From positions 62,001 through 126,000 of the forward strand of contig OU342634.1 of assembly GCA_910589415.1 (NCBI GenBank): 64,000 nt of DNA, written 5' to 3'. A program made the translations under genes and the position numbers. Below are positions 4,019 to 53,882 of this stretch, in pieces (position 1 is the stretch's first letter; every line of letters begins with the position of its first letter). Source of the DNA: Malachius bipustulatus. Lineage: Eukaryota > Arthropoda > Insecta > Coleoptera > Melyridae. A model generated the notes under the pieces. That model had not been told where the DNA came from, did no database searches, and saw only the letters and a program-made list of their open reading frames with translations.

Positions 4019-4180
4019 TACCCAAGCAACACCCCATAGTCTAATTGACGTCTATATATGGTCGATCACGTCTAAAACACGTTTCGGTCTAGTCGTCGAT
4101 TAGTAATAGATGTGTTTTAGATGCCACCATAATTACATCTAACTTGTACACATTTATTAGATGTATTTTTTACATATACT
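4019..4180. mobile_element. Left terminal fragment of a TIR element with AGACGT/AGATGT subrepeats
   Basis: The end sequence ACCCAAGCAACAC is the inverse, with one mismatch, of GTGTTACTTGGGT near 28916-28930. Both ends carry clusters of GACGTCTA and TAGATGT words inside the terminus. The interior runs directly into the satellite that follows, which shares the same words, so the satellite probably grew from this element. Confidence 0.45.
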
Positions 4181-7003
4181 TTTAGATGAACAAATAGCAA
4201 CATATCATTATACATAAGAGTTATTAGTTTTCTCTGATGAAACACAACAAAATATGTGTATTTCATATGGAAATTCTCTCAATTTAATTAGATTGAAATA
4301 TGGTAGATCAATCGGTATCTAATAGACATATCTTAGATGTCCTCATTATTACGTCTACGGCTATTCATTTAATAGATGCATTTTGAATATTTTCTTTTAA
4401 ATATACAAAATAGCAACAAATCATTATACATAAGATTTATTTGTTATGTCCGATGAAACACAACAAAATATGTGGATTTTATATGAAAATCTGTCAATTT
4501 AATTAAATTGAAATGTGATAGATCGATCGGCATTAAATAGACATATCTTAGATGTCCACATTATTACGTCTACGTGTATACATTTTCTAGATGTATTTTG
4601 TAATTTTATTTTTGGATACACAAATAGCAACAAATTATTAGACACATAAGAGTTTATTTGTTATATCCGATGAAACACAACAAAATATGTGTATTTGATA
4701 TAAAAATTCCCTCAATTTAATTAAATTGAAATGTGGTAGATCGATCGACATATAATAGACATATCTTAGATGTCGACATTATTACGTCTATGAGTATACA
4801 TTTTCTAGATGTATTTTGTAATATTATTTTTGGATATACAAAACAGCAACAAATTATTATGCATATAAGAGTTTATTTGTTATATCCGATGAAATACAAC
4901 AAAATATGTGTATTTTATATGAAAATTCCCTCAATTTAATTAAATTGAAATGTGGTAGATCGATCGACATATAATAGACATATCTTAGATATCGACATTA
5001 TTACGTCTATGAGTATACATTTTCTAGATGTATGTATTTTGTAATTTTTTTTTGGATATACAAAGCAGCAACAAATTATTATGCATATAAGAGTTTATTT
5101 GTTATATCCGATGAAACACAAAAAAATATGTGTATTTTATATGAAAATTCCCTCAATTTAATTAAATTGAAATGTGGTAGATCGATCGACATATAATAGA
5201 CATATCTTAGATGTCGGCATTATTACGTCTATGAGTATACATTTTCTAGATGTATGTATTTTGTAATTTTTTTTTGGATATACAAAGCAGCAACAAATTA
5301 TTATGCATATAAGAGTTTATTTGTTATATCCGATGAAATACAACAAAATATGTGTATTTTATATGAAAATTCCCTCAATTTAATTAAATTGAAATGTGGT
5401 AGATCGATCGACATAATAATAGACATACCTATCTTAGATGTCGACATTATTACGTCTATGAGTATACATTTTCTAGATGTATGTATTTTGTAATTTTTTT
5501 TTTGGATATACAAAGCAGCAACAAATTATTATGCATATAAGAGTTTATTTGTTATATCCGATGAAATACAACAAAATATGTGTATTTTATATAAAAATTC
5601 CCTCAATTTAATTAAATTGAAATGTGGTAGATCGATCGACATATAATAGACATATCTTAGATGTCGACATTATTACGTCTATGAGTATACATTTTCTAGA
5701 TGTATTTTGTAATTTTTTTTTTGTATATACAAAGCAGCAAAAAATATTATGCATATAAGAGTTTATTTGTTATATCCGATGAAACACAACAAAATATGTG
5801 TATTTTATATGAAATATCCCTCAATTTAATTAAATTGAAATGTGGTAGATCGATCGACATATAATAGACATATCTTAGATGTCGGCATTATTACGTCTAT
5901 GAGTATACATTTTCTAGATGTATGTATTTTGTAATTTTTTTTTGGATATACAAAGCAGCAACAAATTATTATGCATATAAGAGTTTATTTGTTATATCCG
6001 ATGAAATACAACAAAATATGTGTATTTTATATGAAAATTCCCTCAATTTAATTAAATTGAAATGTGGTAGGTCGATCGACATAATAATAGACATACCTAT
6101 CTTAGATGTCGACATTATTACGTCTATGAGTATACATTTTCTAGATGTATGTATTTTGTAATTTTTTTTTGGATATACAAAGCAGCAACAAATTATTATG
6201 CATATAAGAGTTTATTTGTTATATCCGATGAAATACAACAAAATATGTGTATTTTATATAAAAATTCCCTCAATTTAATTAAATTGAAATGTGGTAGATC
6301 GATCGACATATAATAGACATATCTTAGATGTCGACATTATTACGTCTATGAGTATACATTTTCTAGATGTATTTTGTAATTTTTTTTTTGGATATACAAA
6401 GCAGCAAAAAATATTATGCATATAAGAGTTTATTTGTTATATCCGATGAAACACAACAAAATATGTGTATTTTATATAAAAATTCCCTCAATTTAATTAA
6501 ATTGAAATGTGGTAGATCGATCGACATATAATAGACATATCTTAGATGTCGGCATTATTACGTCTACGAGTATACATTTTCTAGATGTATTTTGTAATTT
6601 TTTTTTTGGATATACAAAGCAGCAACAAATTATTATGATAAGAGTTTTTTTTTGTTATATCCGATGAAATACAACAAAATATGTGTATTTTATATAAAAA
6701 TTACTTCAATTTAATTAAATTGAAATGTGGTAGATCGATCGACATATAATAGACATATCTTAGATGTCGGCTTTATTACGTCTACGAGTATACATTTTCT
6801 AGATGTATTTTGTCATTTTATTTTTAGATGTACAAAACAGCAACAAATTATTATGCATATAAGAGTTTATTTGTCATATCCGATGAAACACAATAAAATA
6901 TGTGTATTTTATATGAAAATTACCTAAATTTATTTTGATTGAAATGTTGTAGATTAATCGTATCTCATAGACATATCTTAGATGTCTGCATTGTCAGCAT
7001 TAT
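4180..7003. repeat. ~219-bp tandem satellite array, about 13 monomers
   Basis: The marker GATCGATCG (or a variant) recurs at 4306, 4521, 4739, 4958, 5180, 5402, 5630, 5848, 6070, 6297, 6515, 6733 and 6952, giving periods of 215-228 bp. Outer monomers are the most diverged and inner ones nearly identical, the usual sign of unequal exchange. Each monomer holds AATTTAATTAAATTG, TAGACATATCTTAGATGTCG and TTTTCTAGATGTA blocks. Short reading frames here are by-products of the repeat and not genes. Confidence 0.9.
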
Positions 7004-12804: not shown

Positions 12805-12816
12805 AATATGCAATAT
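12805..12816. repeat. Target-site duplication, left (450-bp array)
   Basis: AATATGCAATAT, identical to 17360-17371. Confidence 0.85.
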
Positions 12817-12977
12817 CGTAGGTAGGTAGGTCTTAATGAGTATAAAGACAAATCAATAGCCTGTCGTATTGGAGTCGGGTTTTAACCCATCGTCCTGACA
12901 GTTGTCAAGTCTGGAGCGCCCGAGAACCCAAATAAAGAGCTTCAGACTCAGGCAGCAACACACATCCAACCAGACTA

Positions 12978-13034
12978 CCAAAAGCACGGACGGCCGTTTC
13001 GGTCTCATTAGACCTCGTCAGCGTACTATATTGG
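12978..13034 (-). ncRNA. Hammerhead ribozyme, family 1, inverted copy 1
   Basis: Reverse complement of the motif described at 13952. All core residues are present. Confidence 0.85.
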
Positions 13035-13427
13035 AGAGTCCGGAAGGATATGAATCGCTGCATGAATCGAAAACCCTATATGGAATCTCATTCAACCGGT
13101 TACCAGTGACCTCGAGACAGAGCGACATCTATCAAGAGAAACAACAGGCTCCCAGCAAAATAAAACTCCAGTGTGTATCATGGGTTGCAGACACTCCAGG
13201 GGCTACAAGACTGACATCAAATATGCATATTAAAAAGCCGAAGTATACTCAAAAGTCACAACAAACCGTAGGTAGGTAGGTCTTAATGAGTATAAAGACA
13301 AATCAATAGCCTGTCGTATTGGAGTCGGGTTTTAACCCATCGTCCTGACAGTTGTCAAGTCTGGAGCGCCCGAGAACCCAAATAAAGAGCTTCAGACTCA
13401 GGCAGCAACACACATCCAACCAGACTA

Positions 13428-13484
13428 CCAAAAGCACGGACGGCCGTTTCGGTCTCATTAGACCTCGTCAGCGTACTATATTGG
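13428..13484 (-). ncRNA. Hammerhead ribozyme, family 1, inverted copy 2
   Basis: Identical to the inverted copy at 12978, 450 bp downstream. Confidence 0.85.
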
Positions 13485-13951
13485 AGAGTCCGGAAGGATA
13501 TGAATCGCTGCATGAATCGAAAACCCTATATGGAATCTCATTCAACCGGTTACCAGTGACCTCGAGACAGAGCGACATCTATCAAGAGAAACAACAGGCT
13601 CCCAGCAAAATAAAACTCCAGTGTGTATCATGGGTTGCAGACACTCCAGGGGCTACAAGACTGACATCAAATATGCATATTAAAAAGCCGAAGTATACTC
13701 AAAAGTCACAACAAACCGTAGGTAGGTATACTTTTGAGTATACTTCGGCTTTTTAATATGCATATTTGATGTCAGTCTTGTAGCCCCTGGAGTGTCTGCA
13801 ACCCATGATACACACTGGAGTTTTATTTTGCTGGGAGCCTGTTGTTTCTCTTGATAGATGTCGCTCTGTCTCGAGGTCACTGGTAACCGGTTGAATGAGA
13901 TTTCATATAGGGTTTTCGATTCATGCAGCGATTCATATCCTTCCGGACTCT

Positions 13952-14008
13952 CCAATATAGTACGCTGACGAGGTCTAATGAGACCGAAACGGCCGTCCGT
14001 GCTTTTGG
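13952..14008 (+). ncRNA. Hammerhead ribozyme, family 1, sense copy 1
   Basis: Type I hammerhead read directly from the sequence. The core is CUGACGA. Stem II is GGUCU/AGACC with an AAUG loop. GAA follows, and then the 8-base palindrome ACGGCCGU, which gives a 3-bp stem III with a 2-base loop or a longer stem in a dimer. C17 follows, with predicted cleavage after position 13997. Stem I is AGUACG paired with CGUGCU (one G-U pair). It continues through a small internal loop into CCAA/UUGG, the place where the stem I-stem II loop contact normally forms. Self-cleavage would cut array transcripts into ~450-nt units. Confidence 0.88.
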
Positions 14009-14401
14009 TAGTCTGGTTGGATGTGTGTTGCTGCCTGAGTCTGAAGCTCTTTATTTGGGTTCTCGGGCGCTCCAGACTTGACAACTGTCAGGACGATGGG
14101 TTAAAACCCGACTCCAATACGACAGGCTATTGATTTGTCTTTATACTCATTAAGACCTACCTACCTACGGTTTGTTGTGACTTTTGAGTATACTTCGGCT
14201 TTTTAATATGCATATTTGATGTCAGTCTTGTAGCCCCTGGAGTGTCTGCAACCCATGATACACACTGGAGTTTTATTTTGCTGGGAGCCTGTTGTTTCTC
14301 TTGATAGATGTCGCTCTGTCTCGAGGTCACTGGTAACCGGTTGAATGAGATTCCATATAGGGTTTTCGATTCATGCAGCGATTCATATCCTTCCGGACTC
14401 T

Positions 14402-14458
14402 CCAATATAGTACGCTGACGAGGTCTAATGAGACCGAAACGGCCGTCCGTGCTTTTGG
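14402..14458 (+). ncRNA. Hammerhead ribozyme, family 1, sense copy 2
   Basis: Core, stems and cleavage position (after 14447) as at 13952. Confidence 0.87.
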
Positions 14459-14850
14459 TAGTCTGGTTGGATGTGTGTTGCTGCCTGAGTCTGAAGCTCT
14501 TTATTTGGGTTCTCGGGCGCTCCAGACTTGACAACTGTCAGGACGATGGGTTAAAACCCGACTCCAATACGACAGGCTATTGATTTGTCTTTATACTCAT
14601 TAAGACCTACCTACCTACGGTTTGTTGTGACTTTTGAGTAACTTCGGCTTTTTAATATGCATATTTGATGTCAGTCTTGTAGCCCCTGAAGTGTCTGCAA
14701 CCCATGATACACACTGGAGTTTTATTTTGCTGGGAGCCTGTTGTTTCTCTTGATAGATGTCGCTCTGTCTCGAGGTCACTGGTAACCGGTTGAATGAGAT
14801 TCCATATAGGGTTTTCGATTCATGCAGCGATTCATATCCTTCCGGACTCT

Positions 14851-14907
14851 CCAATATAGTACGCTGACGAGGTCTAATGAGACCGAAACGGCCGTCCGTG
14901 CTTTTGG
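14851..14907 (+). ncRNA. Hammerhead ribozyme, family 1, sense copy 3
   Basis: Intact. The monomer around it carries a small deletion near 14640 outside the ribozyme. Cleavage predicted after 14896. Confidence 0.87.
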
Positions 14908-15300
14908 TAGTCTGGTTGGATGTGTGTTGCTGCCTGAGTCTGAAGCTCTTTATTTGGGTTCTCGGGCGCTCCAGACTTGACAACTGTCAGGACGATGGGT
15001 TAAAACCCGACTCCAATACGACAGGCTATTGATTTGTCTTTATACTCATTAAGACCTACCTACCTACGGTTTGTTGTGACTTTTGAGTATACTTCGGCTT
15101 TTTAATATGCATATTTGATGTCAGTCTTGTAGCCCCTGGAGTGTCTGCAACCCATGATACACACTGGAGTTTTATTTTGCTGGGAGCCTGTTGTTTCTCT
15201 TGATAGATGTCGCTCTGTCTCGAGGTCACTGGTAACCGGTTGAATGAGATTCCATATAGGGTTTTCGATTCATGCAGCGATTCATATCCTTCCGGACTCT

Positions 15301-15357
15301 CCAATATAGTACGCTGACGAGGTCTAATGAGACCGAAACGGCCGTCCGTGCTTTTGG
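15301..15357 (+). ncRNA. Hammerhead ribozyme, family 1, sense copy 4
   Basis: Intact; cleavage predicted after 15346. Confidence 0.87.
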
Positions 15358-15750
15358 TAGTCTGGTTGGATGTGTGTTGCTGCCTGAGTCTGAAGCTCTT
15401 TATTTGGGTTCTCGGGCGCTCCAGACTTGACAACTGTCAGGACGATGGGTTAAAACCCGACTCCAATACGACAGGCTATTGATTTGTCTTTATACTCATT
15501 AAGACCTACCTACCTACGGTTTGTTGTGACTTTTGAGTATACTTCGGCTTTTTAATATGCATATTTGATGTCAGTCTTGTAGCCCCTGAAGTGTCTGCAA
15601 CCCATGATACACACTGGAGTTTTATTTTGCTGGGAGCCTGTTGTTTCTCTTGATAGATGTCGCTCTGTCTCGAGGTCACTGGTAACCGGTTGAATGAGAT
15701 TCCATATAGGGTTTTCGATTCATGCAGCGATTCATATCCTTCCGGACTCT

Positions 15751-15807
15751 CCAATATAGTACGCTGACGAGGTCTAATGAGACCGAAACGGCCGTCCGTG
15801 CTTTTGG
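15751..15807 (+). ncRNA. Hammerhead ribozyme, family 1, sense copy 5
   Basis: Intact; cleavage predicted after 15796. Confidence 0.87.
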
Positions 15808-16200
15808 TAGTCTGGTTGGATGTGTGTTGCTGCCTGAGTCTGAAGCTCTTTATTTGGGTTCTCGGGCGCTCCAGACTTGACAACTGTCAGGACGATGGGT
15901 TAAAACCCGACTCCAATACGACAGGCTATTGATTTGTCTTTATACTCATTAAGACCTACCTACCTACGGTTTGTTGTGACTTTTGAGTATACTTCGGCTT
16001 TTTAATATGCATATTTGATGTCAGTCTTGTAGCCCCTGGAGTGTCTGCAACCCATGATACACACTGGAGTTTTATTTTGCTGGGAGCCTGTTGTTTCTCT
16101 TGATAGATGTCGCTCTGTCTCGAGGTCACTGGTAACCGGTTGAATGAGATTCCATATAGGGTTTTCGATTCATGCAGCGATTCATATCCTTCCGGACTCT

Positions 16201-16257
16201 CCAATATAGTACGCTGACGAGGTCTAATGAGACCGAAACGGCCGTCCGTGCTTTTGG
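16201..16257 (+). ncRNA. Hammerhead ribozyme, family 1, sense copy 6
   Basis: Intact; cleavage predicted after 16246. Confidence 0.87.
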
Positions 16258-16650
16258 TAGTCTGGTTGGATGTGTGTTGCTGCCTGAGTCTGAAGCTCTT
16301 TATTTGGGTTCTCGGGCGCTCCAGACTTGACAACTGTCAGGACGATGGGTTAAAACCCGACTCCAATACGACAGGCTATTGATTTGTCTTTATACTCATT
16401 AAGACCTACCTACCTACGGTTTGTTGTGACTTTTGAGTATACTTCGGCTTTTTAATATGCATATTTGATGTCAGTCTTGTAGCCCCTGGAGTGTCTGCAA
16501 CCCATGATACACACTGGAGTTTTATTTTGCTGGGAGCCTGTTGTTTCTCTTGATAGATGTCGCTCTGTCTCGAGGTCACTGGTAACCGGTTGAATGAGAT
16601 TCCATATAGGGTTTTCGATTCATGCAGCGATTCATATCCTTCCGGACTCT

Positions 16651-16707
16651 CCAATATAGTACGCTGACGAGGTCTAATGAGACCGAAACGGCCGTCCGTG
16701 CTTTTGG
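16651..16707 (+). ncRNA. Hammerhead ribozyme, family 1, sense copy 7
   Basis: Intact; cleavage predicted after 16696. Confidence 0.87.
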
Positions 16708-17100
16708 TAGTCTGGTTGGATGTGTGTTGCTGCCTGAGTCTGAAGCTCTTTATTTGGGTTCTCGGGCGCTCCAGACTTGACAACTGTCAGGACGATGGGT
16801 TAAAACCCGACTCCAATACGACAGGCTATTGATTTGTCTTTATACTCATTAAGACCTACCTACCTACGGTTTGTTGTGACTTTTGAGTATACTTCGGCTT
16901 TTTAATATGCATATTTGATGTCAGTCTTGTAGCCCCTGGAGTGTCTGCAACCCATGATACACACTGGAGTTTTATTTTGCTGGGAGCCTGTTGTTTCTCT
17001 TGATAGATGTCGCTCTGTCTCGAGGTCACTGGTAACCGGTTGAATGAGATTCCATATAGGGTTTTCGATTCATGCAGCGATTCATATCCTTCCGGACTCT

Positions 17101-17157
17101 CCAATATAGTACGCTGACGAGGTCTAATGAGACCGAAACGGCCGTCCGTGCTTTTGG
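17101..17157 (+). ncRNA. Hammerhead ribozyme, family 1, sense copy 8
   Basis: Intact; cleavage predicted after 17146. It is the last one before the array ends at 17359. Confidence 0.87.
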
Positions 17158-17359
17158 TAGTCTGGTTGGATGTGTGTTGCTGCCTGAGTCTGAAGCTCTT
17201 TATTTGGGTTCTCGGGCGCTCCAGACTTGACAACTGTCAGGACGATGGGTTAAAACCCGACTCCAATACGACAGGCTATTGATTTGTCTTTATACTCATT
17301 AAGACCTACCTACCTACGGTTTGTTGTGACTTTTGAGTATACTTCGGCTTTTTAATATA

Positions 17360-17371
17360 AATATGCAATAT
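17360..17371. repeat. Target-site duplication, right (450-bp array)
   Basis: AATATGCAATAT, identical to 12805-12816. Confidence 0.85.
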
Positions 17372-32976: not shown

Positions 32977-32988
32977 CTAATTCAGGAA
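32977..32988. repeat. Target-site duplication, left (315-bp array)
   Basis: CTAATTCAGGAA, the LINE-C codons for LIQE; repeated at 34485. Confidence 0.88.
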
Positions 32989-33274
32989 ACAAAAATTTTA
33001 CAATTTCCACCCCTGACTCACAGCATGAAATCAATGAATGACGTATCGTTTTACGATATGTCGTTCATCTTTTTGTTAAACTTTGGAAGTAGGCCTTTCC
33101 TACCTTTACGCACATCGGGAGGCACTGCACTCAGTTGTTGGCATGCGTTTTAGCTGCCTGGGGTTGCATCCTATGGCGAAAGCCGAACCCACCGTGCTAT
33201 TTTTATTTTAATTTATTTTTATCATTTTTCTCACTATTAAGTGACTAAGATTGTGCTGTGTGTTAGCAAGATAC

Positions 33275-33319
33275 ATTGTACTGAAGAGTCCCAATTAGGA
33301 CGAAACACGTGTCTACAAT
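33275..33319 (+). ncRNA. Hammerhead ribozyme, family 2, copy 1
   Basis: Stem I is AUUGUA/UACAAU. The core is CUGAAGA. Stem II is GUCC/GGAC with a CAAUUA loop. GAA follows, and then the palindrome ACACGUGU (3-bp stem III with a 2-base loop, or a dimeric stem). C17 precedes the predicted cut after 33313. All invariant hammerhead positions are met. Its stem and loop sequences are unrelated to family 1. Confidence 0.88.
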
Positions 33320-33595
33320 TTCCACCCCTGACTCACAGCATGAAATCAATGAATGACGTATCGTTTTACGATATGTCGTTCATCTTTTTGTTAAACTTTG
33401 GAAGTAGGCCTTTCCTACCTTTACGCACATCGGGAGGCACTGCACTCAGTTGTTGGCATGCGTTTTAGCTGCCTGGGGTTGCATCCTATGGCGAAAGCCG
33501 AACCCACCGTGCTATTTTTATTTTTATTTTAATTTATTTTTATCATTTTTCTCACTATTAAGTGACTAAGATTGTGCTGTGTGTTAGCAAGATAC

Positions 33596-33640
33596 ATTGT
33601 ACTGAAGAGTCCCAATTAGGACGAAACACGTGTCTACAAT
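33596..33640 (+). ncRNA. Hammerhead ribozyme, family 2, copy 2
   Basis: Identical motif; cut predicted after 33634. Confidence 0.88.
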
Positions 33641-33910
33641 TTCCACCCCTGACTCACAGCATGAAATCAATGAATGACGTATCGTTTTACGATATGTCGT
33701 TCATCTTTTTGTTAAACTTTGGAAGTAGGCCTTTCCTACCTTTACGCACATCGGGAGGCACTGCACTCAGTTGTTGGCATGCGTTTTAGCTGCCTGGGGT
33801 TGCATCCTATGGCGAAAGCCGAACCCACCGTGCTATTTTTATTTTCATTTATTTTTATCATTTTTCTCACTATTAAGTGACTAAGATTGTGCTGTGTGTT
33901 AGCAAGATAC

Positions 33911-33955
33911 ATTGTACTGAAGAGTCCCAATTAGGACGAAACACGTGTCTACAAT
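33911..33955 (+). ncRNA. Hammerhead ribozyme, family 2, copy 3
   Basis: Identical motif; cut predicted after 33949. Confidence 0.88.
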
Positions 33956-34225
33956 TTCCACCCCTGACTCACAGCATGAAATCAATGAATGACGTATCGT
34001 TTTACGATATGTCGTTCATCTTTTTGTTAAACTTTGGAAGTAGGCCTTTCCTACCTTTACGCACATCGGGAGGCACTGCACTCAGTTGTTGGCATGCGTT
34101 TTAGCTGCCTGGGGTTGCATCCTATGGCGAAAGCCGAACCCACCGTGCTATTTTTATTTTAATTTATTTTTATCATTTTTCTCACTATTAAGTGACTAAG
34201 ATTGTGCTGTGTGTTAGCAAGATAC

Positions 34226-34270
34226 ATTGTACTGAAGAGTCCCAATTAGGACGAAACACGTGTCTACAAT
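34226..34270 (+). ncRNA. Hammerhead ribozyme, family 2, copy 4
   Basis: Identical motif; cut predicted after 34264. Confidence 0.88.
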
Positions 34271-34484
34271 TTCCACCCCTGACTCACAGCATGAAATCAA
34301 TGAATGACGTATCGTTTTACGATATGTCGTTCATCTTTTTGTTAAACTTTGGAAGTAGGCCTTTCCTACCTTTACGCACATCGGGAGGCACTGCACTCAG
34401 TTGTTGGCATGCGTTTTAGCTGCCTGGGGTTGCATCCTATGGCGAAAGCCGAACCCACCGTGCTATTTTTATTTTAATTTATTT

Positions 34485-34496
34485 CTAATTCAGGAA
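34485..34496. repeat. Target-site duplication, right (315-bp array)
   Basis: CTAATTCAGGAA. The LINE-C endonuclease reading continues directly after it. Confidence 0.88.
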
Positions 34497-35872
34497 CCCT
34501 GGCTGGTAGCCGGCCGCGTAGCAGGTTTAGGAGCAGCCAAAGGTAAGATCATTTACAATAGGGCCTAAGGTAACAGCAGAACATGCATTTACGTGAAAAA
34601 CGAACTAAAAGTCCTGGTTATAACACAATTATGTTTCAGAGACTTGACCACAGTAATAATGAAATATCATATGGATGGGCCAGCCAAGGAGTAGCTTCAT
34701 TATACCTACCATATGATTCCACCAGTCCTCCTCCGTCACAAGAAATGGGACTACTGGTTAAGTACTGCGAGGACCATAACCTCCAGGTCATTATCGGTGT
34801 CGATGCAAACTCCCATCACGCAGTGTGGGGCAGCAGCGACACAAACAACAGAGGTGTGTCACTGTTACAGTTTATGGTATCCAGGAAACTGGAACTTCTG
34901 AATAGGGGCAGGGAACCCACCTTTGTAACATCGAGACGGAAAGAAATAATTGACATCACCTTAGCTTCCCCTCGTATCGGCGCCCGGGTAGTCAAGTGGC
35001 GTGTATCTGATGAACCGTCTCACTCAGATCACAGATACATTCAGCTGGAAATCAACTCCGTTGATAAGACAGCAGAGCTGTATCGCAATCCACGAAAGAC
35101 TGACTGGGCGAGGTACAGGGCGGAGTTGAGGGCAAATCTAACCAATGTCAAAAGCAACATTGCATGCATATACGATATCGAGGTAGCTACAGAACAACTC
35201 CAAGTAGCCATTACAACCTCATATCACAACAACTGTACTCAGACACCCCGTCGGAAAGGTGGGGATGTCAGTTGGTGGAACCCCAAACTGGCGGAAATGA
35301 GACAGAAAACACGTAAGCTTTTTAACAAAGCCAAGAAAACAGGAAAGTGGGACGAATATAAGACCACCATTACTGAATACAACAAGAAGATCAGATTTGC
35401 AAGAAGAGCTGCGTGGAGGAAGCTCTGTCAGGATGTGGAAACGACATCCGAAGGAGCAAGACTCTACAAACTCATGGCAAAAGATCCCCTGAACCCCATT
35501 GGTACCTTAAAAAATAGCAATGGTAATTACACAGAAACCGGAAGGGAAACTCTTAAGGTACTCCTCAGAGCACACTTTCCGGACTGCAGTGTAATTGAAG
35601 TGGAAGATGGCCTACACAACACCCTGGAAAACCTGAATCACAGGGTCACCAGGGAGGACTGGAGGACATCAAGACACATAATTACATATGAAAAAGTTAA
35701 ATGGGCCATAAGCTCATTTGAGCCTTACAAGTCACCTGGCCCGGACGGGATCTATCCTGCCCTTTTAGAGCAGGCGAGTGAAGATCTCACGCCGGTGCTT
35801 TGTAGGATATTCAGAGCCAGTTTGGCACTTGGTTACATCCCACTGGCCTGGAGAGAAATAAAAGAGGTCTTT

Positions 35873-36372
35873 NNNNNNNNNNNNNNNNNNNNNNNNNNNN
35901 NNNNNNNNNNNNNNNNNNNNNNNNNNNNNNNNNNNNNNNNNNNNNNNNNNNNNNNNNNNNNNNNNNNNNNNNNNNNNNNNNNNNNNNNNNNNNNNNNNNN
36001 NNNNNNNNNNNNNNNNNNNNNNNNNNNNNNNNNNNNNNNNNNNNNNNNNNNNNNNNNNNNNNNNNNNNNNNNNNNNNNNNNNNNNNNNNNNNNNNNNNNN
36101 NNNNNNNNNNNNNNNNNNNNNNNNNNNNNNNNNNNNNNNNNNNNNNNNNNNNNNNNNNNNNNNNNNNNNNNNNNNNNNNNNNNNNNNNNNNNNNNNNNNN
36201 NNNNNNNNNNNNNNNNNNNNNNNNNNNNNNNNNNNNNNNNNNNNNNNNNNNNNNNNNNNNNNNNNNNNNNNNNNNNNNNNNNNNNNNNNNNNNNNNNNNN
36301 NNNNNNNNNNNNNNNNNNNNNNNNNNNNNNNNNNNNNNNNNNNNNNNNNNNNNNNNNNNNNNNNNNNNNNNN
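35873..36372. other. Assembly gap (500 N)
   Basis: Exactly 500 undetermined bases, a conventional placeholder size. LINE-C stops on the left and LINE-A begins mid-endonuclease on the right, so the true content and length are unknown. Confidence 1.
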
Positions 36373-38790
36373 ACATAACATCAACTGGCTTAATTACTCA
36401 AACTTCACTGACGAAGAAGGCCGTGAAGCGGAATCGTTTGCGATCAGCTATGGTTTTACCCAGCTCGTTGATGAACCAACACGCATTCCCGATCGCGAGG
36501 GAGAGTTTGCTAGCCTGTTGGATCTGTTTTTGACCACGAACCCTCAAATGTATACTAGTACGGTGAAAGCCCCACTAGGTTCCTCAGACCATAAACTAGT
36601 CTCAACATCTTGTGTCCTACCAATTACTAGTGTTAAAGAAGCAAGTAAACCTCGTGTAGTCTGGCACTATAGATCTGCTAAATGGGAAGAACTCAGGGAA
36701 TATTATCGAGATTTTCCATGGAGGAGTGTTTGTTTCGGCTCTAATCATCCATCTGTTTGTGCTAGGGAAGTTGCTCAAGTCATCCTAACAGGCATGGAAG
36801 CATTCCTACATTCCCTTTTCAAAAAAACAGCCCTCAAACAGCAAACCTTGGTTCAACAAAAGATGCAAGGAAGCTGTCGCCTCCAAACAACTGGCTTTAC
36901 GCCAATGGCGAGAGAGCCCCGACAGCATAAACCACCACAATTTCATCCTTGCTCGAAACAGATGCAAGGAAATAATAGATCAAACCAAGGAAACTCACAA
37001 CCAAAGAATTAGGAACAAACTTCTCTCCTGCCCTAACGGTTCGAAATCCTTTTGGTCTGTAACTAAGGCAGTCAGCCAGAACTTCACCAGATCCACGATT
37101 CCACCACTTACACGGACAGATGGGACTATCGCATCCACATCTACTGAGAAGGCGAACTTGTTGGCGGGAGTCTTTTCTTCATACTCTTCCGTCGACTTTC
37201 ATGGAAGAACTCCGCCAATAATCCCTACCGTGGAGCCCAAAATGTCAGACATTCTTTTCCGACAGCGTGTCATAAAGAGCATTATGTTAGCCTTAGACCC
37301 AAACAAAGCTTCTGGGCCCGATGACGTACCTGTTATCGTACTAAAAAAATGCGCCACTGAGCTGTCATATCTGTTTTCTGTAGACTTTTCAACTTGTCGT
37401 ATAAAAAGGGAATATTTCCTTCTTGCTGGAAATGTGCACGGATCCAACCTATTCCCAAGAAAGGCAAAAAGACTATACCAAGTAACTATCGACCAGTGGC
37501 ACTGCTTTCAGTAATATCCAAGATTATGGAGAAAGCTATTAACCAACATCTTTTAAAATACTTGGAAGGAGCTAATATTATCAGCGACCGCCAAAACGGA
37601 TTCCGTAAACAGAGCAGGTCAACTGGTGACCTCCTCACTTACGTCACCGAGTTGTGGAACAGCTCAATCGAGCACCATGGGGAGTCTCGAGGGGTTGCGC
37701 TTGATATTTCTAGAGCTTTCGACCGTGTTTGGCATGATGGACTGTTGGCAAAACTGCAGGCCTATGGTATGCCCGAGAAATTCTGCTTGTGGCTTGCGAG
37801 TTATCTCGGAGATCGTTCATTACAGGTGGCAGTCGATGGAGTCATTTCTGAGACCTTTTCCATCAATGCCGGTGTGCCTCAGGTATTCATTTTAATATTT
37901 ATAAACGACTTGCTTGAAACGACAAAAAATCCAATATACAGTTTTGCCGACGACAGTACCCTCATATCTTCTTATACGTTAGATGCGCGAACATCTGCCA
38001 TCGACGCACAGACTCGCAGGGAGCAAGAAGTTGCCATACTTAACAATGACTTGCAAGACATTCTAATTTGGGGCGATAGAAACCAAGTCCAATTTAATGC
38101 TGTAAAAACCCAAGCAGCCATCTTCTCCAAAAAGACCAACGTTTTGGAGCCAGATATGATGATGGCGGGACACTCTCTTACCCCAGCGTCATCTCTTCGT
38201 TTACTTGGAGTGAACCTTGGAGCGAACATGTCTTGGCATGATCATGTTGCAGGTCTGGCGAAGAGTGCTTCTCAAAAACTTGGAACACTCTTCCGCACGA
38301 AGAAATTTTATACACCACAACAGCTTCTCCTCTTATACAAGGCTCAAATCCGACCATCCTTGGAATACTGCTCACATATTTGGAGCTCAGCTCCGAAACA
38401 TACGCTGAGACTACTCAACTCTAACGAACATCGAAGAAGAGTAGCTGACCTGAGTCTGTTTTACAGATATTTTAATGGAAAGTGTTCAAAAGACGTGGCC
38501 CGCTTGATCCCACCAAGATCAAGACCGGGCAGAAATACACGCCGAGCCGCAGACGCTCATCCGTATCAGGTTCAGCTCGTTACACCTCGGACCACCCTAT
38601 TTCAGACCTCTTTTATGTATAGAACCGCTCACTTTGGAATAGCATTCCAAAGGGCGTGTTTCCCGAAGTATACAACCTACAGAGATTCAAGGCCAACGTG
38701 AATCGACATCTATCTCCGCTCATGCACCGCTCCCAGAGCGTCATAGGGATTTCCCTGCAGTGCATGTACATTTTCAATTAAAAAAAAAAA
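36373..38790 (+). pseudogene. LINE-A copy 1 (jockey/CR1-type), decayed
   Basis: It is homologous to LINE-A copy 2 from 51404 onward and starts at the gap edge within the endonuclease (HNINWLNYSNF; SSDHKLVS). A 4-base insertion near 36810 shifts the frame. A TAG lies in the region near 37383. In the reverse transcriptase, the block after GVPQ is shortened by a deletion (VFILIFINDLL; the GYILSPTLFL seen in copy 2 is lost). The catalytic FADD is still visible near 37944. A second deletion (about 60 bp) falls near 38415. The element ends in an A-rich tail near 38780. Confidence 0.85.
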
Positions 38791-50963: not shown

Positions 50964-53882
50964 ATGGAAAAATTTATAGTCGACTTTTGTAATATTAGAG
51001 GTTTAAATACGAATATCAATTCAGTACACCAACATCTTCAGACAAATAAACCTCACATTCTAGCACATTCTAGAAACAAAAGTCCAAGCGTCATCAAGCA
51101 CAGTTAATTATCTCTATCCAGGATATGACTTTCATTCCCGATTTAGACGTAACTTCGGAATTGGCATTTTTGTCAGAAGTGACCTCTCCTGCCAACGTGA
51201 GGAAGACTTTGAGCCCAATGACTTTGACGTCATGTGGCTTAGGATAAGAGACCGACAAACGACGAGATTTATCTGTTGTTTATACCGGCCACCCAGCGAT
51301 ACACAGTATAGGACAATTTTTTTGTCCCTCACAAAAACTGTTGAATTCATACAGATAAACTACCCTAAAGCTGAGATATCCATCTTGGGTGATTTTAATG
51401 TACATAACATCAACTGGCTTAAATACTCAAACTTCACTGATGAAGAAGGCCGTGAAGCGGAATCGTTTGCGATCAGCTGTGGTTTTACCCAGCTCGTTGA
51501 TGAACCAACACGCATTCCCGATCGCGAGGGAGAATTCGCTAGCCTGTTGGATCTGTGTTTGACCACGAACCCTCAAATGTATACTATTACGGTGAAAGCC
51601 CCACTAGGTTCCTCAGACCATAAACTAGTCTCAACATCTTGTGTCCTACCAGTTACTAGTGTTAAAGAAGCAAGTAAACCTCGTGTAGTCTGGCACTATA
51701 GATCTGATAAATGGGAAGAACTCAGGGAATATTATCGAGATTTTCCGTGGAGAAGTGTTTGTTTCGGCTCTAATGACCCATCTGTTTGCGCTAGGGAAGT
51801 TGCTCAAGTCATCCTAACAGGCATGGAAGCCTACATTCCCTTTTCAAAAAAACAGCCCTCAAACAGCAAACCTTGGTTCAACAAAAGATGCAAGGAAGCT
51901 GTCGCCTCCAAACAACTGGCTTTTCGCCAATGGCGAGAGAGCCCCGACTGCATAAACCACCACAATTTCATCCTTGCTCGAAACAGATGCAAAGAAATAA
52001 TAGATCAAACCAAGGAAACTCACAGCCAAAGAATTAGGAACAAACTTCTCTCCTGTCCTAACGGTTCGAAATCTTTTTGGTCTGTAACTAAGGCAGTCAG
52101 CCAGAACTTCACCAGATCCACGATTCCACCACTTACACGGACAGATGGGACTATCGCATCCACGGCTACTGAGAAGGCGAACTTGTTGGCGGGAGTCTTT
52201 TCTTCATACTCTTCCGTCGACTTTCATGGAAGAACTCCGCCAATAATCCCTTCCGTGGATTCCAAAATGTCAGACATTGTTTTCCGACAGCGTGTCATAA
52301 AGAGCATTATGTTAGCCTTAGACCCAAACAAAGCTTCCGGGACGGATGACGTACCTGTTATCGTACTAAGAAAATGCGCCACTGAGCTGTCATCTGTTTT
52401 CTGCCGACTTTTCAACTTGTCGTATAAAAAGGGAATATTTCCTTCTTGTTGGAAATGTGCACGGATCCAACCTATTCCCAAGAAAGGCAAAAAGACTATA
52501 CCAGGTAACTATCGACCAGTGGCACTGCTTTCAGTAATATCCAAGATTATGGAGAAAGCTATTAACCAACATCTTTTAAAATACTTGGAAGGAGCTAATA
52601 TAATCAGCGACCGCCAATACGGATTCCGCAAACAGAGGTCAACTGGTGACCTCCTCACTTACGTCACCGAGCTGTGGAACAGCGCAATCGAGCACCATGG
52701 GGAGTCTCGAGGGGTTGCGCTTGATATTTCTAGAGCTTTCGACCGTGTTTGGCATGATGGACTGTTGGCAAAACTGCAGGCCTATGGCATGCCCGAGAAA
52801 TTCTGCTTGTGGCTTGCGAGTTATCTCGGAGATCGTTCATTGCAGGTAGCAGTCGATGGAGTTCTTTCTGAGACCTTTTCCATCAATGCCGGTGTGCCTC
52901 AGGGATACATTTTATCTCCGACTCTCTTTCTAATATTTATAAACGACTTGCTTGAAACAACAAAAAATCCAATATACAGTTTTGCCGACGACAGTACCCT
53001 CATATCTTCTTATACGTTAGATGCGCGAACATCTGCCATCGACGCACAGACTCGCAGGGAGCAAGAAGTTGCCATACTTAACAATGACTTGCAAGACATT
53101 CTAACTTGGGGCGATAGAAACCAAGTCCAATTTAATGCTGGAAAAACCCAAGCAGCCATCTTCTCCAAAAAGACCAACGTTTTATAGCAAGATATGATGA
53201 TGGCGGGACACTCTCTTACCCCAGCGTCATCTCTTCGTTTACTTGGAGTGAGCCTTCGAGCGACCATGTCTTGGCATGATCATGTTGCAGGTCTGGCGAA
53301 GAGTGCTTCTCAAAAACTTGGAACACTCTTTCGCACGAAGAAATTTTATACACCACAACAGCTTCTCCTCTTATACAAGGCTCAAATCCGACCATCCTTG
53401 GAGTACTGCTCACATATTTGGAGCTCAGCTCCTAAACATACGCTGAGACTACTCGACTCTATTCAAAAAGAGCCATCCGCTTGATTGGGGACCCAGATTT
53501 GACAAAAAATTTAGACACTCTCGAACATCGAAGAAGAGCAGCTGACCTGAGTCTGTTTTACAGATATTTTAATGGAAAGTGTTCAAAAGACGTGGCCCGC
53601 TTGATCCCACCAAGATCAAGACCGGGCAGAAATACACGCCGAGCCGCAGACGCTCATCCGTATCAGGTTCAGTTCGATACACCTCGTACCACCCTATTTC
53701 AGACTTCTTTTATGTATAGAACACTTTGGAATAGCATTCCAAAGGGCGTGTTTCCCGAAGTATACAACCTACAGAGATTCAAGGCCAACGTGAATCGATA
53801 TCTCCGCTCATGCACCGCTCCCAGAGCGTCATATGGATTTCCCTGCAGTGCATGTGCATTTTCAATAAAAAAAAAAGAATAG
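50964..53882 (+). pseudogene. LINE-A copy 2: endonuclease plus reverse transcriptase, nearly intact
   Basis: The ATG at 50964 opens FIVDFCNIRGLNTN, the endonuclease start. A small duplication near 51060 (CACATTCTAG twice) shifts the frame, which then stays open from about 51070. Endonuclease: ILGDFNVHNINW, SSDHKLVS. Reverse transcriptase: NYRPVALLSVISK, QYGFRKQRST, DISRAFDRVWH, GVPQGYILSPTLF, and FADD near 52981. A TAG at 53185 interrupts the frame where copy 1 has GAG. A one-base loss in an A run near 53470 shifts it again before IGDPDL and HRRRAADLSLFYRYF in the C-terminal domain. The element ends with AATAAA and an A tail. Jockey/CR1-related; three lesions make it inactive. Confidence 0.88.

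What the first reader, a model, noticed from the sequence alone, without database searches (positions are those of the whole stretch)
32977..34496. A second, unrelated hammerhead retrozyme array inside a LINE endonuclease, starting at the self-cleavage nucleotide
Seen: 4.7 monomers of ~315 bp, four complete hammerheads and a 12-bp duplication (CTAATTCAGGAA) that splits LINE-C codons. Homology of the first monomer begins at the first base after the predicted cut (U of UACAAU at 32999), not at a random point. Inference: the RNA template was an oligomer whose 5' end was made by ribozyme cleavage, then reverse-transcribed and inserted by target-primed synthesis. This directly links self-cleavage with integration.
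Basis: partly seen in the sequence, partly recalled or inferred. Interest (0 to 1): 0.92.

Follow-up and report, generated by a model that had tools for sequence, protein, structure and literature searches.

The report
Penelope-style two-armed retrozyme insertions
A short repeat that encodes a predicted self-cutting RNA sits inside a LINE gene as a two-armed insert whose two ends fall at two fixed points of the repeat, the same end pattern that Penelope elements show in this genome, so a Penelope-type enzyme likely pastes such RNAs into DNA by copying them from both cut strands, which would answer how these repeats move.

Summary
The array is real: four type I hammerheads in 4.7 units of 315 bp, inside a LINE endonuclease frame, with a 12-bp target duplication. 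Its plus-strand homology does begin at the predicted cleavage nucleotide. But the bases before it are not just filler: AACAAAAA (32988-32995) is the start of a second, inverted arm. I examined 37 arrays of this family and of the window's 450-bp family in the same genome. In all 29 with both ends resolved the arms lie head to head, with one outer end at fixed site A and the other at fixed site B of the unit; 28 arrays show 12- or 13-bp duplications; the target tends to GWC-N12-GWC with an A/T-rich middle. Inner 5' ends are spread evenly: 1 of 85 lies at the cleavage site (this array; 0.22 expected). One Penelope-like family in this genome follows the same plan: one A end and one full (B-type) end in 13 of 14 head-to-head pairs. 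A published Penelope enzyme cuts and extends both strands and starts at two internal RNA sites. Best reading: Penelope-type two-site, two-strand target-primed copying of retrozyme RNA, probably circular. The helper is not identified.

The parts
32977..32988 (.). left copy of the 12-bp target duplication CTAATTCAGGAA
32988..32995 (-). 8-nt left arm AACAAAAA: minus strand of the unit, positions 79-72, i.e. a cDNA started at site A (first A shared with the duplication)
   Evidence: exact match; position equals A ends 77-80 of other arrays; same stub in L042
32996..32998 (.). three filler bases TTT between the arms
32999..34484 (+). right arm: 4.7 units of 315 bp (second unit 321 bp); inner 5' end at unit position 1 (first base after the predicted hammerhead cut), outer 3' end at position 220 (site B)
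33275..33319 (+). hammerhead 1, predicted cut after 33313
   Evidence: Rfam RF00163, 53.5 bits
33596..33640 (+). hammerhead 2, predicted cut after 33634
33911..33955 (+). hammerhead 3, predicted cut after 33949
34226..34270 (+). hammerhead 4, predicted cut after 34264
34485..34496 (.). right copy of the 12-bp target duplication
34583..35761 (+). part of the host LINE frame with Exo_endo_phos_2 domain (the interrupted gene)
   Evidence: E 7.9e-24
12805..12816 (.). left 12-bp target duplication AATATGCAATAT of the 450-bp array
12817..13728 (-). left arm of the 450-bp hammerhead array, outer end at unit position 172 (site A' region), inner end at 161
13730..17359 (+). right arm of the 450-bp array, inner end at unit position 183, outer end at 212 (site B')
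17360..17371 (.). right 12-bp target duplication of the 450-bp array

Best explanation
The 315-bp array is one two-armed insertion with a 12-bp target duplication, likely made by a Penelope-type (GIY-YIG plus reverse transcriptase) enzyme that is predicted to have copied retrozyme RNA from both cut strands of the target, one strand starting at fixed RNA site A and the other at fixed RNA site B. Shown from sequence: in 29 of 29 resolved arrays of two families the arms are head to head, one outer end at A and one at B; duplications are 12 or 13 bp in 28 arrays; the target tends to GWC-N12-GWC with an A/T-rich middle; inner 5' ends are spread evenly; one Penelope-like family in the same genome ends by the same plan. 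Inferred: a dimeric enzyme makes two nicks 12 bp apart; each 3' end primes one cDNA at its own start site, on one RNA; the RNA is probably a ribozyme-made circle, so each cDNA can run round it several times; the cDNAs stop anywhere and are joined by microhomology or filler. In the window one arm stopped after 8 nt and the other after 4.7 rounds, probably by chance at the cleavage nucleotide. The hammerhead would then serve to make the circle, not to set the insertion end.
For: Outer ends at 77-80 or 219-224 (315 family) and 176-182 (172 in the window) or 211-215 (450 family) (W315 and L042, L061 and L063 from BLAST limits); one A and one B in 11 of 11 and 18 of 18 resolved arrays of 16 and 21 examined, about 2 in a billion if ends were drawn independently at 1/2 (one search prints the value for 28 arrays). 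Duplications: 25 of 12 bp, 3 of 13 bp. GWC outside the 12 bp in 15 and 10 of 31 sites, background 2.55%. Stub AACAAAAA in the window and in L042. Arms share array-specific variants. Penelope-like GIY-YIG frames, head-to-head 23 against 2; Penelope ends at A or 34 nt further, 13 of 14 head-to-head pairs with one short and one full end, P 0.0009. Published Penelope protein: both strands cut and extended, two internal start sites (PMC11167929).
Against: The one Penelope family whose ends I read does not share the target motif: 0 matches for its A end + 12 nt + GWC; with the retrozyme rate of 10 in 31, 0 of 14 has odds of about 0.004, so that family is probably not the helper. Full-length Penelope matches may be internal; B was read directly at one insertion only, in a TA repeat where the duplication is ambiguous. 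Rotifer Penelope duplications are 8-10 bp, not 12. The published enzyme starts in an AC-rich stem-loop and shows no strand preference for its start sites; here the sites are U-rich and pairing is strict. In the 315 family A and B lie about 142 nt apart, not 30-40. 8 of 37 arrays are unresolved and four of those show no duplication. The arrays fetched were the best matches, not a random sample. Circularity is not shown; L054, L040 and the window's 450-bp array carry patterns that suit multimers.
Confidence: 0.77

Rival explanations
1. One reading: the template was a linear oligomer whose 5' end was made by hammerhead cleavage; synthesis ran off at that end, so insertion ends mark the cleavage site.
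For: The right arm of the window's array ends exactly at the first base after the cut, followed by TTT that could be untemplated. In L068 the left arm jumps from a short B start to the sequence just 5' of the cut. 7 of 85 inner ends lie within 7 nt of the cut, 3.2 expected, P 0.047.
Against: 1 of 85 inner ends at the cut, 0.22 expected; even spread. In none of the 30 junctions shown do the two arms end at the same unit position, as run-off on one linear RNA would predict.
Confidence: 0.06
2. LINE twin priming: a LINE enzyme nicked the target, and the second strand primed on the same RNA, giving an inverted 5' part.
For: Gives head-to-head arms with duplications (established for L1, recalled).
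Against: Twin priming fixes one end, the RNA 3' end or poly(A) tail; here both outer ends are fixed, inside the unit, without poly(A), in 29 of 29 resolved arrays. Two-strand cutting and extension has not been shown for R2Bm or human LINE-1 according to PMC11167929.
Confidence: 0.07
3. Penelope-type insertion as above, but the template is a linear multimeric transcript of an existing array, not a circle.
For: L054 has variants at a period of three units; the window's 450-bp array and L040 have variants in non-adjacent units. A uniform donor array would also give uniform copies.
Against: Many arrays are perfectly uniform, up to 26 units in L033, and the two arms share array-specific variants; long uncut multimers would have to survive several hammerheads (inference).
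Confidence: 0.3
4. A DNA satellite amplified by recombination and inverted duplication, not a retroelement.
For: Long uniform tandem arrays look like satellites.
Against: 12- to 13-bp target duplications in 28 arrays, fixed outer ends, a target motif, and an 8-nt arm that recombination does not explain.
Confidence: 0.02

Closest known systems
Animal non-LTR retrozymes (Cervera and de la Pena 2020, PMC7229834; abstract and passages seen)
   Same: Tandem repeats of 150-450 bp with a type I hammerhead, low GC, no long frame, target duplications longer than 4 bp; a circular RNA is proposed as the intermediate.
   Different: Head-to-head arms, two fixed ends, constant 12-bp duplication and a palindromic target are not mentioned in the passages seen; the mover was left open, with Penelope as the favoured candidate.
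Penelope-like elements (PAc protein, PMC11167929; abstract and the first two of four text parts seen; rotifer Penelope, PMC3846280; passages seen)
   Same: Head-to-head inverted ends, a second 3' end further on (tail) on one side only, tandem copies, hammerhead in the repeat, both target strands cut and extended, two internal start sites.
   Different: The retrozyme array encodes no protein; its duplication is 12 bp; A and B are about 142 nt apart in the 315 family (33 nt in the 450 family); start sites are U-rich.
R2 and other LINEs with a self-cleaving ribozyme at the 5' end (mentioned in PMC7761336, passages seen)
   Same: A ribozyme is thought to set the 5' end of the element RNA.
   Different: Here the inner ends do not mark the cleavage site.
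L1 twin priming (recalled)
   Same: Inverted 5' part within one duplication.
   Different: Only one outer end is fixed there; both are here.

Membership tests
animal non-LTR retrozyme | type I hammerhead in tandem repeats of about 150-450 bp | tested here: met
   4 hammerheads at 53.5 bits, period 315
animal non-LTR retrozyme | GC below 50% | tested here: met
   unit GC 0.410; 450-bp unit 0.456
animal non-LTR retrozyme | non-coding | tested here: met
   no ORF above 75 aa wholly inside the array; an 89-aa ORF only overlaps its left part
animal non-LTR retrozyme | target duplication longer than 4 bp | tested here: met
   12 bp
animal non-LTR retrozyme | self-cleavage and circular RNA in tissue | not testable with these tools
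   no RNA data at hand
animal non-LTR retrozyme | no LTR, primer binding site or polypurine tract | not tested
   not searched for as such
Penelope-like element (as a member) | encodes reverse transcriptase and GIY-YIG endonuclease | tested here: not met
   no ORF above 75 aa wholly inside the array
Penelope-type insertion (works like) | head-to-head arms | tested here: met
   29 of 29 resolved arrays of 37 examined, two of them with an 8-nt left arm
Penelope-type insertion (works like) | two fixed 3' ends, one per arm | tested here: met
   A and B, 29 of 29; Penelope family in this genome 13 of 14 pairs
Penelope-type insertion (works like) | same target preference as a Penelope family of this genome | tested here: not met
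   one family tested: 0 matches of A end + 12 nt + GWC; other families not tested
LINE-mobilised element | poly(A) or LINE-like tail at the sense 3' end | tested here: not met
   no poly(A): the 3' end reads ATTTTTATTTTAATTTATTT, inside the unit; likeness to LINE tails not tested

The most novel reading that the evidence does not exclude
Double rolling-circle target-primed reverse transcription: the two subunits of a Penelope-type enzyme sit on one ribozyme-made RNA circle, one at site A and one at site B, nick both target strands 12 bp apart at a palindromic GWC-N12-GWC site, and drive two cDNAs round the same circle at once, so that a 315-nt RNA becomes a head-to-head array of up to 8.9 kb in one event.
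Probability: 0.45. Interest if true: 0.9.

Novelty: new variant of a known kind. Interest (0 to 1): 0.78.

Why it matters
Animal retrozymes are widespread circular RNAs with no proven mover; a review states that their repeats show no conserved motif that helps deduce which autonomous element they use (PMC7761336, passage). The end rule found here supplies such a signature and makes the question testable with one protein and one RNA. It also suggests what two-strand initiation by a Penelope enzyme, seen in vitro, leaves behind in a genome, offers an alternative to the antisense self-priming idea for head-to-head Penelope copies (PMC3846280), and shows how a very short RNA could become a long DNA array in one event.

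Tried and rejected
Cleavage-site rule: rejected as a general rule. I first took the ten bases before 32999 as untemplated filler; two searches showed an inverted stub. The 218-bp array at 4146-6986 was considered as a third retrozyme: the strict core pattern CTGANGAG...CGAAAC has no match there. A scan of viral contigs for an exact hammerhead piece found 0. Junction positions called by BLAST for L040, L054 and L061 were corrected by exact matches. L069-L077 were read at the inner junction only. L081 did not contain the expected Penelope end; later placed it at C2:13683566-13683675, further left. A genome-wide count of A end + 12 nt + GWC in the 320-bp relatives, with controls at other spacings, did not complete, nor was the control spacing for the Penelope pattern. 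One search stopped with an error after printing part of its table; one search is the mended run. The 85 inner ends include single-arm arrays and junction-only loci; some may be one to a few bases off through microhomology. Duplications of 13 bp (L042, L043, L057) were read in one 12-bp register chosen by me. The duplication given for L049 lies about 30 bp beyond its last unit sequence and may be chance; that for L036 is judged spurious because it lies in unit sequence. An earlier count said 13 Penelope matches stop at 76-82; the correct count is 14.

Full report
What is there. Bases 32999-34484 hold 4.7 head-to-tail units of 315 bp (one of 321 bp), with four complete type I hammerheads at 53.5 bits, flanked by the 12-bp repeat CTAATTCAGGAA. 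The frame after the right repeat carries an Exo_endo_phos_2 domain, E 7.9e-24, so the host is a LINE endonuclease gene. The unit has GC 0.410, and no frame above 75 aa lies wholly inside the array. It shows no BLAST match at E 1 or better to the 450-bp unit of the window's other hammerhead array.

The ten bases. But 32988-32995, AACAAAAA, equals the minus strand of the unit at positions 79-72, the place where inverted arms start in related arrays. So this is a two-armed insertion: a very short left arm, three bases TTT, and a long right arm. L042 has the same stub, ending at the same unit position 72.

Other copies. The genome that holds the window (544 Mb, 52 contigs, not named) has 393 scored matches of the 315-bp unit and 209 of the 450-bp unit, both lower bounds and printed only in part. 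I fetched 15 further arrays of the first family and 20 of the second, 37 with the two in the window. They were places with the best matches, not a random sample; at least two more arrays of the first family appear and 18 further loci of the second were not fetched as arrays. Outer ends fall at 77-80 (A) or 219-224 (B) in the 315 family and at 176-182 (A'; 172 in the window) or 211-215 (B') in the 450 family (the window array and L042; L061 at 179 and 215 and L063 at 212 and 183 by BLAST limits). Both ends are resolved in 11 of 16 and 18 of 21 arrays. All 29 are head to head, minus arm left and plus arm right, with one end of each kind. Unresolved are L031, L036, L041, L044, L045, L049, L050 and L054: L031, L041, L050 and L054 show no duplication, L036 only a spurious one, L044 a 14-bp repeat with an inner end at one side, L049 one arm only, and L045 runs off the fetched stretch. 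Duplications in the other arrays and L049: 25 of 12 bp and 3 of 13 bp, 28 in all; L061 and L063 have none recovered. Three small arrays of a 320-bp relative (about 80% identical) show the same plan by eye.

Target. In the A-left orientation, 31 empty sites (28 plus the three 320-bp arrays) show GWC directly outside the 12 bp in 15 of 31 on the left, 10 of 31 on the right, 19 on at least one side and 6 on both; the background is 2.55% per position in the window. The 12 bp are 84% A+T against 67% in the flanks and 62% in the window. GWC is its own reverse complement, so the site is palindromic, which suits a two-fold symmetric endonuclease cutting both strands 12 bp apart (inference). The window's own site lacks GWC on both sides (GCC and CCC).

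Inner 5' ends. I mapped 28 and 57 inner ends (counts). They are compatible with an even spread (KS p 0.42 and 0.46). Exactly at the cut: 1 of 85, 0.22 expected, P 0.19. Within 3 nt: 1, 1.5 expected. Within 7 nt: 7, 3.2 expected, P 0.047; six of these are from the 450 family, at positions 6-7 and 445, and may reflect stalling at a folded hammerhead (inference). In none of the 30 junctions do the two arms end at the same unit position; the closest are 9 nt apart (L037). Junctions: 13 filler, 9 microhomology, 9 blunt of 31.

Template. Units of one array are nearly identical, and the two arms share array-specific variants: 0.15 differences within an array and 0.15 between its arms, against 0.83 between arrays (315 family); 1.66 and 1.25 against 4.88 (450 family). 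L033 has 26 identical units. A single small circle copied many times explains this simply. A uniform donor array would too, and L054 (period 3), the window's 450-bp array and L040 carry patterns that suit multimers. So the circle is favoured, not shown.

Who moves it. The genome has many GIY-YIG frames of Penelope size: 150 matches scored out of 775 candidates, many in frames of about 820-855 aa, tandem at 3.3-3.5 kb. Of neighbouring matches within 10 kb, 23 pairs are minus-plus, 2 plus-minus, 33 plus-plus and 14 minus-minus; both plus-minus pairs join matches with different profile spans and scores, so probably different families. I read both ends of one Penelope insertion (C1:76.885-76.888 Mb): one arm stops after ...GTGTAATCGTT, the other runs 34 nt further; its target is a TA repeat, so its duplication (12-14 bp) is ambiguous. 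With 110 bp of that end as query, 40 places match: 25 reach the last base (one at 83% identity), 14 stop at 76-82 (10 exactly at 76), 1 at 65. Of 14 head-to-head pairs in that list, by my reading of neighbours, 13 have one short and one full outer end; C16:3.547 Mb has two full ones (P 0.0009). Full matches can also be internal, so B was read directly only once. The A-to-B step, 34 nt, resembles the 33 nt between A' and B' of the 450 family, and both A sites lie at GUU before GU; in the 315 family the step is about 142 nt, with hairpins predicted between.

Published frame. A purified Penelope protein cuts and extends both strands, starts internally at two adjacent sites, the step between them being the tail of genomic copies, and inserts RNA whether or not its hammerhead works (PMC11167929; abstract and the first two of four text parts seen). 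Rotifer Penelope copies have head-to-head inverted ends, a 31-bp tail optionally on one of them, and 8-10-bp duplications in the copies named (none in some); the authors suggest self-priming on an antisense template (PMC3846280, passages). Animal retrozymes were proposed to use Penelope elements because both carry type I hammerheads, occur in tandem and co-exist (PMC7229834), and a review says that no motif reveals the mover (PMC7761336). Of 74 papers with two of the terms retrozyme, Penelope and head-to-head, the 15 listed include none with both retrozyme and head-to-head; the listings and the passages read showed no report of two-ended retrozyme insertions. Subscription papers and preprints are not held, so this does not prove absence in print.

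Against. The Penelope family tested does not share the target motif: 0 matches for its A end, 12 nt and GWC, odds of about 0.004 if it did. The helper is therefore probably another family or still unknown. The published enzyme showed no strand difference in start site and starts in an AC-rich stem-loop, while here pairing is strict and the sites are U-rich; a dimer holding one RNA would explain the pairing (inference). The species is unknown; I take it for an insect from LINE and repeat types (recalled, not tested).

Verdict. A retrozyme array whose reported 5' end is most likely a coincidence, but which led to a strong and, as far as searched, unreported rule for how retrozymes of this genome are inserted.

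Noticed in passing
window 12805-17371: The window's other hammerhead array (450-bp unit) is a single head-to-head insertion with a 12-bp duplication AATATGCAATAT; two non-adjacent units share one variant.
   Followed up: yes
L042:1653-1674: Second array with the same 8-nt inverted stub (AACAAAAA, ending at unit position 72) as the window array.
   Followed up: yes
L068:286-330: In this small 320-bp-family array the left arm starts with about 10 nt of B sequence and then jumps to the sequence just 5' of the hammerhead cut, as if onto the 3' end of a cleaved RNA.
   Followed up: partly
L047, L050, L054, L069: Four inner ends of the 450-bp family stop at unit position 6 or 7, just outside hammerhead stem I; L051 and L059 stop at 445.
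   Followed up: partly
L054:1375-5698: Nine 450-bp units with variants at a period of three units, as from a trimeric template or later exchange.
   Followed up: no
L051:2619-6018: About 3.4 kb of other sequence lies inside the plus arm of a 450-bp array.
   Followed up: no
L041: The left and right parts of the stretch hold further short matches to the hammerhead region in opposite orientation, away from the main array.
   Followed up: no
window 4146-6986: 218-bp tandem array, 12.9 copies, with no match to the strict hammerhead core pattern.
   Followed up: no
window 34583-37012: The LINE frame downstream of the insertion contains a long run of undetermined residues (X) and continues into sequence like the LINE at 51232-53187.
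   Followed up: no
G000 C11 3382-82839: A contig made largely of GIY-YIG (Penelope-type) frames: six minus-strand, then eighteen plus-strand, head to head at about 3.3-kb spacing.
   Followed up: partly
G000 C1:2206015 and many other places: A 320-bp hammerhead relative, about 80% identical to the 315-bp unit, appears to be very abundant: most of the 74 scored RF00163 matches have one and the same score.
   Followed up: partly
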